Shown: positions 2,711 to 7,891 of the stretch, piece after piece
How the letters are laid out: every line of letters begins with the position of its first letter
Position numbering within the stretch: the stretch's first letter is position 1
NCBI GenBank assembly: GCA_016195565.1
Contig: JACPZK010000031.1
Span: 1-64,000, forward strand
Reading direction: 5' to 3'
DNA length: 64,000 nucleotides
Origin: Nitrospirota bacterium
Lineage (GTDB): Bacteria; Nitrospirota; Thermodesulfovibrionia; Thermodesulfovibrionales; UBA1546
The notes under the pieces: model-generated
Seen by the model: the letters and a program-made list of their open reading frames with translations, nothing else
The model's database searches: none
What the model was told of the DNA's origin: nothing
Program-made: the position numbers and the translations under genes

Positions 2711-2756
2711 AAACAGGGGGAATACAGTTAATAAAATGTTTGTCAGGCATGTATAA

Positions 2757-2932
2757 GGAGGCTGTGTCTGGATTAAGGCAAGATTCACGGGTCAGTCAGA
2801 ATAGGGGCTGAAGTCGCAATGAAATGGAGCGGATAGCCCCGCATAACAGATGTGAAGAACAAAATATATTGCACTAACATTTATACTTTTACAAAGGCAG
2901 TTTAATATTGCCGAAAAACAGGCACAGCCTCC
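2757..2932 (+). repeat. MITE-like element, left copy
   Basis: A 176-base element with terminal inverted repeats GGAGGCTGTG and CACAGCCTCC (perfect over 10 bases, extending to 14 with one mismatch). It contains GGGGCTGAAGTC and GGATAGCCCC blocks that form an internal hairpin. An equally long copy lies inverted at 4200-4375, so the two frame the aminotransferase gene. No clear target-site duplication and no coding capacity were seen. Confidence 0.75.
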
Positions 2933-2972
2933 CATCACATATGCATGCCGAAGATATAAAGTAAACCGCCTT

Positions 2973-4112
2973 TTACTTCATCAGCAGTTCTTCTGCCGCG
3001 GCAACGCCCGCTCCGAGTTTTACCGGATGCCCCATTCCTTTCAACACCATTTCCACGCCTGCAATCGCAGTAATCACATCAAAGGTGTCGGCATAGCCGA
3101 GATGAGCAATCCTGAATATCTTTCCCTTGACATGGTCCTGTCCGCCTGCTGCCGTTATCCCGTATTTCTCTCTTAGGTTCTTATAAATCTCCTGTCCGTC
3201 AATGCCTGCCGGAGCGCATACCGCAGTCACTGAATTGCTCGGAGATTCCTTGGGATAAAGTTCAAGTCCCAGCGCCTTAACAGCCGCCCTTGTAGCATTT
3301 GCAAGCCTTTCATGCCGCTTGAATACATTCTCAAGCCCTTCTGCCCGGAGCAGTTTAATGCTTTCGTTTAATCCTATAATCAGAGTAACCGGAGATGTAA
3401 AGTTTGTCTGGTTCTTTGCGAGATTTTCCCGCTCTTTTTTAAAATTAAAATAGAATCTCGGGCATTTTGATTTTTCCGAGAACTTCCATGCCTTTTCACT
3501 TATGCCTACGAATGCAAGCCCCGGCGGAAGCATCACGCCCTTCTGCGAGCCGCCTATCATTACATCTATCCCCCATTCGTCCATCCTGAGGTCATGGGCC
3601 ACAATTGCTGATATGGCGTCAACAATAAGGATTGTGTTTTCATATTTTTTTACAACCTTGGCAAGCGCCTCTATATCATGATAAACACCTGTTGATGTTT
3701 CTGATGCCTGTACAAACACTCCTTTGATGGACGGGTCATTTTTTAATTTTGCCTCGATAGTCTCAGGTTTTACCGCATATCCCCACTCAACAATAATCTC
3801 TTCTGCCTGAAGCCCGTATGCCTTGCATATCTTGGTCCATCGCTCGCCGAATTTACCGCCGTTTACAGTAAGAACCTTGTCTCCGGGGCTGAAAAAATTA
3901 TTAACAGCGCCTACCATGCCGCCTGTTCCTGTGGAGCATAGGATAAGCACATCGTTTTTTGTCTGGTAAAGCCACTTCAGGCCATTTTTTGCGGCATCAA
4001 GCACAGGGATGAAATCAGGCGAACGGTGATGTATAATCGGCATTGCCATGGCAAGCAATGCCTCTGAAGGCACAGGGGTAGGCCCCGGCGCTAACAGGTA
4101 ACGTTTTAACAT
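2973..4112 (-). CDS. Class V PLP-dependent aminotransferase (serine/alanine-glyoxylate type)
   Basis: A soluble PLP enzyme of 379 residues, the usual length for the family. It begins with the typical APGPTPVP stretch; the PLP-binding STGTGG loop lies near residue 60, VDAISA near 164 (the Asp contacts the pyridine nitrogen), and the Schiff-base lysine is K191 in GGSQKGVMLPPG. Relatives use serine, alanine or aspartate with glyoxylate or pyruvate, and in many anaerobes serve serine synthesis. The substrate cannot be read from sequence. The gene stands alone between two inverted MITE-like elements, and the right copy lies within its 5' leader. Confidence 0.9.
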   Translation of the reverse strand: MLKRYLLAPGPTPVPSEALLAMAMPIIHHRSPDFIPVLDAAKNGLKWLYQTKNDVLILCSTGTGGMVGAVNNFFSPGDKVLTVNGGKFGERWTKICKAYGLQAEEIIVEWGYAVKPETIEAKLKNDPSIKGVFVQASETSTGVYHDIEALAKVVKKYENTILIVDAISAIVAHDLRMDEWGIDVMIGGSQKGVMLPPGLAFVGISEKAWKFSEKSKCPRFYFNFKKERENLAKNQTNFTSPVTLIIGLNESIKLLRAEGLENVFKRHERLANATRAAVKALGLELYPKESPSNSVTAVCAPAGIDGQEIYKNLREKYGITAAGGQDHVKGKIFRIAHLGYADTFDVITAIAGVEMVLKGMGHPVKLGAGVAAAEELLMK

Positions 4113-4199
4113 GAAAAACCTCCTTAAGTTTAAGTGGATGAATAGTTTAAACTTTAAGTATTATCAGAGTCAAGAACAGTGTCGGAACACAATTTTTCA

Positions 4200-4375
4200 A
4201 GAGGCTGCGACTGTTTTTCGGCAATATTAAACTACCATTTGCAAGATTGCAGTGTTAGTACAATATAGCAAGTTTTTACACCTACATATGCGGGGCTATC
4301 CGCTCCGCTTTGCGGAGACTTCAGCCCCTATTCTGACAGATCCGTGAATCTTGCCGCAATCCAGCCCCAGCCCTC
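4200..4375 (-). repeat. MITE-like element, right copy (inverted)
   Basis: A reverse-oriented relative of 2757-2932 and also 176 bases. Shared blocks include GGCAAGATTCACGG, CAGAATAGGGGCTGAAGTC, GAGCGGATAGCCCCGCAT and TTTAATATTGCCGAAAAACA. It holds an extra TCCGC-AAA-GCGGA hairpin that is absent from the left copy. It lies directly upstream of the aminotransferase start and could form part of its transcript. Confidence 0.75.
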
Positions 4376-7752: not shown

Positions 7753-7860
7753 TGTCATTGCGAGCGAAGCGAAGCAATCTCGCTTTTATATAAACCCGCC
7801 TCTGGCGGGTTTATCAATATGTTAGAGATTGCCACGTCGCTACCGCTCCTCGCAATGACA
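7753..7860. repeat. TGTCATTGCGAG dispersed inverted-repeat element, copy 2
   Basis: The same termini as the 2276 element (TGTCATTGCGAG to CTCGCAATGACA). The loop carries an additional perfect palindrome, AAACCCGCC-TCT-GGCGGGTTT (about 7793-7813), which looks like a second small repeat nested in the first. Confidence 0.85.
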
Positions 7861-7891
7861 TTAAAATGTGTGGTTTTTCAGCACTATCAGC

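What the first reader, a model, noticed from the sequence alone, without database searches (positions are those of the whole stretch)
2757..4375. Aminotransferase gene framed by two inverted 176-base MITE-like elements
Both elements are 176 bases, carry terminal inverted repeats (GGAGGCTGTG/CACAGCCTCC in the left copy) and share long internal blocks. Their opposed orientation makes the segment 2757-4375 a composite-transposon-like unit and a potential invertible segment. An internal GGGGCT/AGCCCC hairpin may be structured RNA.
Basis: seen in the sequence. Interest (0 to 1): 0.65.

Follow-up and report, generated by a model that had tools for sequence, protein, structure and literature searches.

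The report
Dispersed folded intergenic repeat family
The two 176-base elements beside the aminotransferase gene are two unrelated insertions of a small repeat, unknown to Rfam, that is scattered between genes in one order of Nitrospirota bacteria and whose conserved feature is not its letters but the shape its single strand can fold into.

Summary
In detail: 2757-2932 (+) and 4200-4375 (-) are two copies of one element, 80% identical, with imperfect terminal inverted repeats. The composite-transposon and invertible-segment reading fails. The ferritin-like gene, aminotransferase and HIT gene stand in the same order in six related species without intact elements, and the two copies are no closer to each other than to random family members. 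The host genome holds 16 near-full copies plus partial ones. About 55 independent loci were found in 12 genomes, between genes, in any orientation to neighbours. Several sites are empty in relatives, and some intergenic regions were hit twice, in opposite orientations. Covariance models find diverged members in five families of the same order and none elsewhere in 296 genomes of the phylum. Across these families almost every pair of the stems has changed on both sides, while short unpaired motifs (UCACGGGU, GGCUGAAG, UAGUUUA) stay fixed. G-U pairs exceed A-C mismatches about fourfold in the terminal stem, so one strand is selected to fold. Best reading: a non-autonomous mobile element recognised as a folded single strand (RNA or ssDNA), moved by an unidentified enzyme. 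No Rfam family matches. Reverse transcriptase, TnpB, IS110 and Y1 transposase genes are each missing from copy-rich genomes.

The parts
2757..2932 (+). copy 1 of the element (176 bases), between a rubrerythrin/ferritin-like gene and the 3' end of the aminotransferase gene
   Evidence: CM bits 192; closest relative G001:C1:2836-3011, 97%
4200..4375 (-). copy 2 of the element, upstream of the aminotransferase gene, opposite orientation
   Evidence: CM bits 174
2757..2781 (+). 5' arm of terminal stem P1 (2757-2774) and inner stem P1b GGCAA (2777-2781), copy 1
   Evidence: covariation
2908..2932 (+). 3' arm: P1b TTGCC (2908-2912) and P1 (2915-2932), copy 1
   Evidence: covariation
2782..2803 (+). 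conserved unpaired region GATTCACGGGTC...; UCACGGGU is kept in diverged families
2804..2840 (+). P2/P3 hairpin, GGGGCT(...)AGCCCC with inner stem 2815-2820/2824-2829
2848..2896 (+). P4 region, weaker covarying hairpin (approximate limits in copy 1)
   Evidence: 66-78% of cells paired
2897..2907 (+). conserved unpaired motif region GCAGTTTAATA (UAGUUUA in most members)
4292..4328 (-). P2/P3 hairpin of copy 2; inner stem here is CTCCGC/GCGGAG, a compensatory change against other copies
2741..2756 (+). left half of a GGCAGGCA..TGCCTGCC-type palindrome (TGTCAGGCATGTATAA) into which copy 1 appears to have inserted; the right half lies at about 2933-2950
   Evidence: G007 has the intact palindrome ATGGCAGGCACACATGCCTGCCAT at this site
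2973..4112 (-). class-V aminotransferase gene (neighbour, not part of the element)
   Evidence: Pfam PF00266; syntenic without intact elements in relatives

Best explanation
The element is a non-autonomous small mobile repeat (about 165-190 nt) whose functional form is a folded single strand: a long terminal stem (P1, P1b), a hairpin P2/P3, a weaker hairpin P4 and three short unpaired motifs. An enzyme supplied in trans recognises that fold, as RNA or as single-stranded DNA, rather than a fixed end sequence, and inserts copies between genes, sometimes into other palindromes. Shown: dispersal, presence or absence at orthologous sites, intergenic location, conserved fold of one strand, limitation to one order in the genomes sampled. 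Inferred: that movement needs the fold, and that the enzyme acts in trans. Not known: the enzyme, and RNA versus ssDNA. The aminotransferase gene merely received two independent insertions.
For: Copies: 16 near-full plus partial ones in the host genome; up to 20 in same-genus genomes; about 55 independent loci; intergenic with neighbour orientations 18/12/11/10. Mobility: element-free orthologous sites for both window copies and for copies 1, 4 and 9; a 97% identical copy at a different locus in another species; five or six intergenic regions occupied in opposite orientations by copies that are mostly not each other's nearest kin. Fold: A2, 79 genus- and family-level sequences, 26 pairs with changes on both sides, 133 such cells against 54 in shuffles and 36-57 in slid controls; A5, 38 sequences from five families, 40 of 44 pairs with changes on both sides, 325 cells against 90, P1 cells 95% paired with mostly 4-6 pair types per position (alignment fitted to the model). 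Strand: P1 has G-U 121 against A-C 30 cells (96 against 29 by distinct locus, p about 1e-9), while unpaired columns show balanced transitions. Distribution: all 21 positive genomes among 296 of the phylum are in the host's order. No Rfam match.
Against: No mobilising enzyme identified: RVT_1 absent from G000, G001, G007, G054, G072, G094; TnpB-type PF07282 absent from all ten genomes tested; IS110 PF01548 absent from G000, G001, G005, G054, G072, G094; Y1_Tnp absent from G001, G072, G081, G116 though present in many others. No target-site duplication seen. Pairing is partly maintained between orthologous copies after insertion (43 double changes keep the pair against 19 that do not), which a purely parasitic dead copy would not need. 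Transcription was not tested.
Confidence: 0.55

Rival explanations
1. A multi-copy structured RNA with a cellular role (independent small RNA gene or RNA-binding platform) that happens to be duplicated and dispersed; each copy is selected at its locus.
For: Compensatory changes between orthologous copies, e.g. copy 5 versus 50 at 5% divergence has two double changes kept, three single changes kept and none broken; riboswitch-like pattern of variable stems and fixed loops across families.
Against: Copy number 1 to at least 20 with frequent gain and loss; patchy (14 of 135 genera); random orientation to neighbours; core replaced in several copies; no promoter or terminator above the number in shuffled sequence was seen by a simple scan of the window locus.
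Confidence: 0.2
2. A classical MITE: a deletion derivative of a DDE-transposase insertion sequence recognised by its end sequence.
For: Size, terminal inverted repeats, intergenic dispersal, genus-level similarity of the ends GGAGGCTGTG.
Against: No target-site duplication; end sequence varies with compensation within the genus and completely between families; no longer element with the same ends seen in loci read.
Confidence: 0.1
3. Inert palindromic repeats whose arms are kept complementary by template switching at replication forks (quasi-palindrome correction), not by selection on a folded strand.
For: Concerted changes of one arm to match the other; nested palindromes at the same sites.
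Against: Would leave G-T and A-C mismatches equally often, but G-U exceeds A-C about fourfold in P1 and 24 to 2 in P3; does not explain fixed unpaired motifs across families.
Confidence: 0.1
4. Composite transposon or invertible cassette carrying the aminotransferase gene.
For: Two inverted copies flank the gene.
Against: Same gene order without intact copies in six relatives; copies not closely related; a similar inverted pair in G001 flanks different genes.
Confidence: 0.02

Closest known systems
bcr1 and related BCR repeats of the Bacillus cereus group (PMC6542083)
   Same: Small (100-400 bp) dispersed repeats with mobile-DNA features, restricted to one bacterial group, up to 130 copies per genome, mechanism of movement unresolved
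   Different: bcr mobility is linked to a TTTAT motif; here no target repeat was found, stems are rewritten by compensation, and the range is a whole order. That bcr1 has a conserved fold is from my own knowledge
Enterobacterial RU/ERIC small mobile sequences (PMC2759123, PMC2229807)
   Same: 127-168 bp intergenic repeats likened to MITEs
   Different: Different sequence and hosts; cross-family rewriting of stems was not tested there by me
REP/BIME palindromes with RAYT (Y1) transposases (PMC2817692, PMC3733652)
   Same: Intergenic palindromic repeats; that they move as folded single strands is from my own knowledge
   Different: REPs are 20-40 bp palindromes; this element is 176 nt with several helices and is abundant in genomes without any detected Y1 gene
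Insertion sequences that target REP palindromes, e.g. IS1397, ISKpn1, ISPpu9 (PMC1525189)
   Same: Insertion into palindromic repeats, as copy 1 seems to show
   Different: Those carry a transposase; this element carries none, and only part of its copies lie in palindromes
IS110 bridge RNA (PMC11208160)
   Same: A structured RNA of similar length tied to mobility (length from my own knowledge)
   Different: No IS110 transposase in most copy-rich genomes; the element is not attached to a coding gene

Membership tests
MITE (non-autonomous DDE element) | Terminal inverted repeats | tested here: met
   (pair I3)
MITE (non-autonomous DDE element) | Target-site duplication | tested here: not met
   No consistent shared flank of 2-10 bases in 60 copies; none at the empty sites, where spacers are often too diverged to be exact
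MITE (non-autonomous DDE element) | Autonomous element with the same ends | tested here: inconclusive
   Only short or truncated copies found in G000 and relatives; ends with weak similarity would be missed
Composite transposon | Enclosed segment moves as a unit between related flanking copies | tested here: not met
Known RNA family (Rfam 15) | Match to a covariance model | tested here: not met
   (genus-level and diverged members)
cis-regulatory RNA / riboswitch | Sense-strand position upstream of genes of one pathway | tested here: not met
   Neighbour orientations 18/12/11/10, unrelated genes
Structured noncoding RNA | Covariation supporting helices | tested here: met
   with shuffle and slide controls; no phylogeny-aware test
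Structured noncoding RNA | Transcription | not testable with these tools
   no expression data
REP/BIME with RAYT | Y1 transposase in the genome and repeats beside its gene | tested here: not met
   None in G001 (100% complete, about 16 copies) or G072 (at least 9 copies); no element within 1.5 kb of the 20 Y1 loci read
Retroelement / retron | Reverse transcriptase in copy-rich genomes | tested here: not met
TnpB omega RNA or IS110 bridge RNA | TnpB or IS110 gene | tested here: not met

The most novel reading that the evidence does not exclude
A new class of genomic parasite whose transposition signal is the fold of a 176-nt RNA or ssDNA, with freely changing end sequence, moved by an enzyme that is none of reverse transcriptase, IS110, TnpB-linked or obligatory Y1 transposases.
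Probability: 0.25. Interest if true: 0.85.

Novelty: new variant of a known kind. Interest (0 to 1): 0.58.

Why it matters
Small intergenic repeats are usually read as dead MITEs defined by end sequence. Here the ends are rewritten freely while the pairing and a few unpaired motifs are kept across an order, which points to recognition of a folded strand. The family is well sampled, so the question of what moves such elements, and whether they are transcribed, becomes directly testable. It also supplies a covariance model for annotating these repeats.

Tried and rejected
Composite transposon and invertible segment: rejected by synteny and copy kinship. In-place flipping of the element: opposite-orientation copies in one intergenic region mostly rank 11-76 of 78 in similarity, with one exception at murA (rank 2), so independent insertions are more likely. 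Riboswitch: rejected by orientation. Reverse transcriptase, TnpB, IS110, Y1 association: rejected or not general. Replication-strand bias of insertion: weak and not convincing after correction for gene direction, 29 of 45, p 0.07. Viral or plasmid carriage: none with the exact core in IMG/VR, none by blastn in phages or plasmids; 45 hits of a loose gapped pattern are not members by covariance model. Clustering of copies in inverted pairs: two pairs within 1.8 kb in G000 against 0.33 expected, P about 0.04, not pursued. RNAalifold alone missed P2-P4 in the consensus. Alignment A4 mixed sense and antisense matches and was discarded.

Full report
What was checked. They are 176 bases long, inverted with respect to each other and 80% identical. 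The left copy has a perfect 10-base terminal inverted repeat inside an imperfect 29-base one; the right copy's repeat is imperfect. Both fold far better than shuffled sequence (z about -5).

How many and where. The host genome (2.30 Mb, 33 contigs) has 16 near-full copies and several fragments. Seven same-genus genomes have 2 to 20 each, and genomes of two other genera of the same family 1 to 3. I collected 103 full or partial copies from 13 genomes (G046, a distant one, included) and grouped them by flanking sequence into about 55 independent loci. With a simple ORF caller nearly all lie between genes, with the flanking genes in all four arrangements (18, 12, 11 and 10 loci). This excludes a general cis-regulatory role.

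The window locus. In G001, G002, G004, G005, G006 and G007 the ferritin-like gene and the aminotransferase gene, and where the contig reaches it the HIT gene, have the same order and orientation with no intact element. At the copy-1 site G001 and G002 have an ordinary hairpin (ACAGCGTCCCGATAAAATCGGGACGCTGT); G007 has an intact GGCAGGCA..TGCCTGCC palindrome; G006 has that palindrome opened by another insert; G004 has a truncated left end of the same element. In the host, copy 1 lies between two half-sites resembling that palindrome, so insertion into the palindrome is likely (inference). At the copy-2 site G001, G004, G005 and G007 have a short spacer, and G006 carries an unrelated repeat. The two window copies are not close kin (rank 53 of 78), while copy 1 is 97% identical to a copy at murA in G001. 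So the aminotransferase gene was not carried; two insertions happened beside it.

Mobility. Element-free orthologous sites were also found for copies 1, 4 and 9 (numbering). Five or six intergenic regions carry elements in opposite orientation in different species; most of these opposite copies are not each other's nearest relatives, so separate insertions are the simpler reading. No target duplication was detected in 60 copies. Several copies (3, 6, 10 in the host, 40 in G003) keep one or both outer arms but have a different central hairpin made of AGCAGTAGAGCAG-like repeats; in one orthologous set (6 against 44, 49, 76) the classic centre is present in the sister species, so the centre was probably replaced in place.

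Fold. An alignment of 79 copies supports P1, P1b, P2/P3 and P4: 88% of cells paired, 133 cells changed on both sides against 54 in shuffles and 36-57 in slid controls. A covariance model from it found members in other families of the order with the same unpaired motifs and rewritten stems. On 38 sequences spanning five families, 40 of 44 pairs show changes on both sides and the P1 cells are 95% paired. That alignment was made with the model and leans towards it, but slid controls fall to 39-47% paired. Bases fixed in both near and distant sets are essentially UCACGGGU, GGCUG.AG.C, GC..A.AG.C and UAGUUUA.

Which strand. If the DNA ends were read as duplex, G-T and A-C mismatches should be equally common. 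In P1 there are 121 G-U and 30 A-C cells (96 and 29 counted once per locus), in P3 24 and 2, in P4 111 and 56, while changes in unpaired columns are balanced between the two strands. The strand of copy 1 as written is therefore the one that folds. Sequence cannot tell RNA from ssDNA. Cells are not independent, so the p-values are indicative.

Selection after insertion. Between orthologous copies, 43 double changes keep the P1 pair and 19 do not; 72 single changes keep it and 67 do not. I have no exact neutral expectation; the excess of kept double changes suggests either selection at resident copies or arm-to-arm correction. This is the main evidence for the functional-RNA rival.

Range. A model rebuilt from the wider alignment hit 21 of 296 genomes sampled across the phylum, all in the host's order, with nine or more copies (the scoring limit) in G054, G072 and G094. 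No Rfam family matches genus-level or diverged members. None in phage or plasmid collections.

Who moves it. Not found. Reverse transcriptase, TnpB and IS110 genes are absent from most or all copy-rich genomes tested. Y1 transposases are present in many genomes, the host included, but absent from G001 and G072, and the element is not found beside the Y1 genes read.

Verdict. Observation confirmed; interpretation partly supported. It works like a small non-autonomous mobile repeat, but it fails two usual MITE tests (target duplication, fixed end sequence), so I do not file it as a MITE. I found no earlier report in the held literature, which is not proof of absence.

Noticed in passing
2277-2352 and about 7755-7861: Another dispersed palindromic repeat, GTCATTGCGAGG...CTCGCAATGACA, occurs twice in the first 8 kb of the window.
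   Followed up: no
2741-2756 and 2933-2950; G007:C28 (L242), G006:C170 (L246): A GGCAGGCATATGCCTGCC palindrome family and a CTTTACGGCAGCACC/GCTGCTTCGTAAAG family recur next to copies of the element, giving nested palindromes at intergenic sites.
   Followed up: partly
G000:C17:25418-25606, G000:C2:88509-88687, G000:C27:25768, G003:C78:11229-11409: Element arms with a different central hairpin built of AGAGCAGTAGAGCAGCAG-type repeats; at the pdxA locus sister species have the classic centre.
   Followed up: partly
G000:C6:106794 (L134), G003:C13:1732 (L171), G003:C80:391 (L209): Three non-orthologous copies share the variant GTCCGAGCTG(A/C)TCGGGAAGTC in place of CAGAATAGGGGCTGAAGTC, removing the 5' side of P2.
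   Followed up: no
G054 (L334-L340): Copies in G054 share longer flanks (AGTAAACAAC before and after), suggesting a larger unit or a direct repeat there; two copies lie about 240 bases apart in L336.
   Followed up: no
G046:C53:34379-34545 (L328), G026:C1:421258-421426 (L344): A divergent subfamily with different unpaired motifs (GTCTGGGTTCTC, GGACTAATTC); the L328 copy has a near-perfect terminal inverted repeat of about 30 bases.
   Followed up: no
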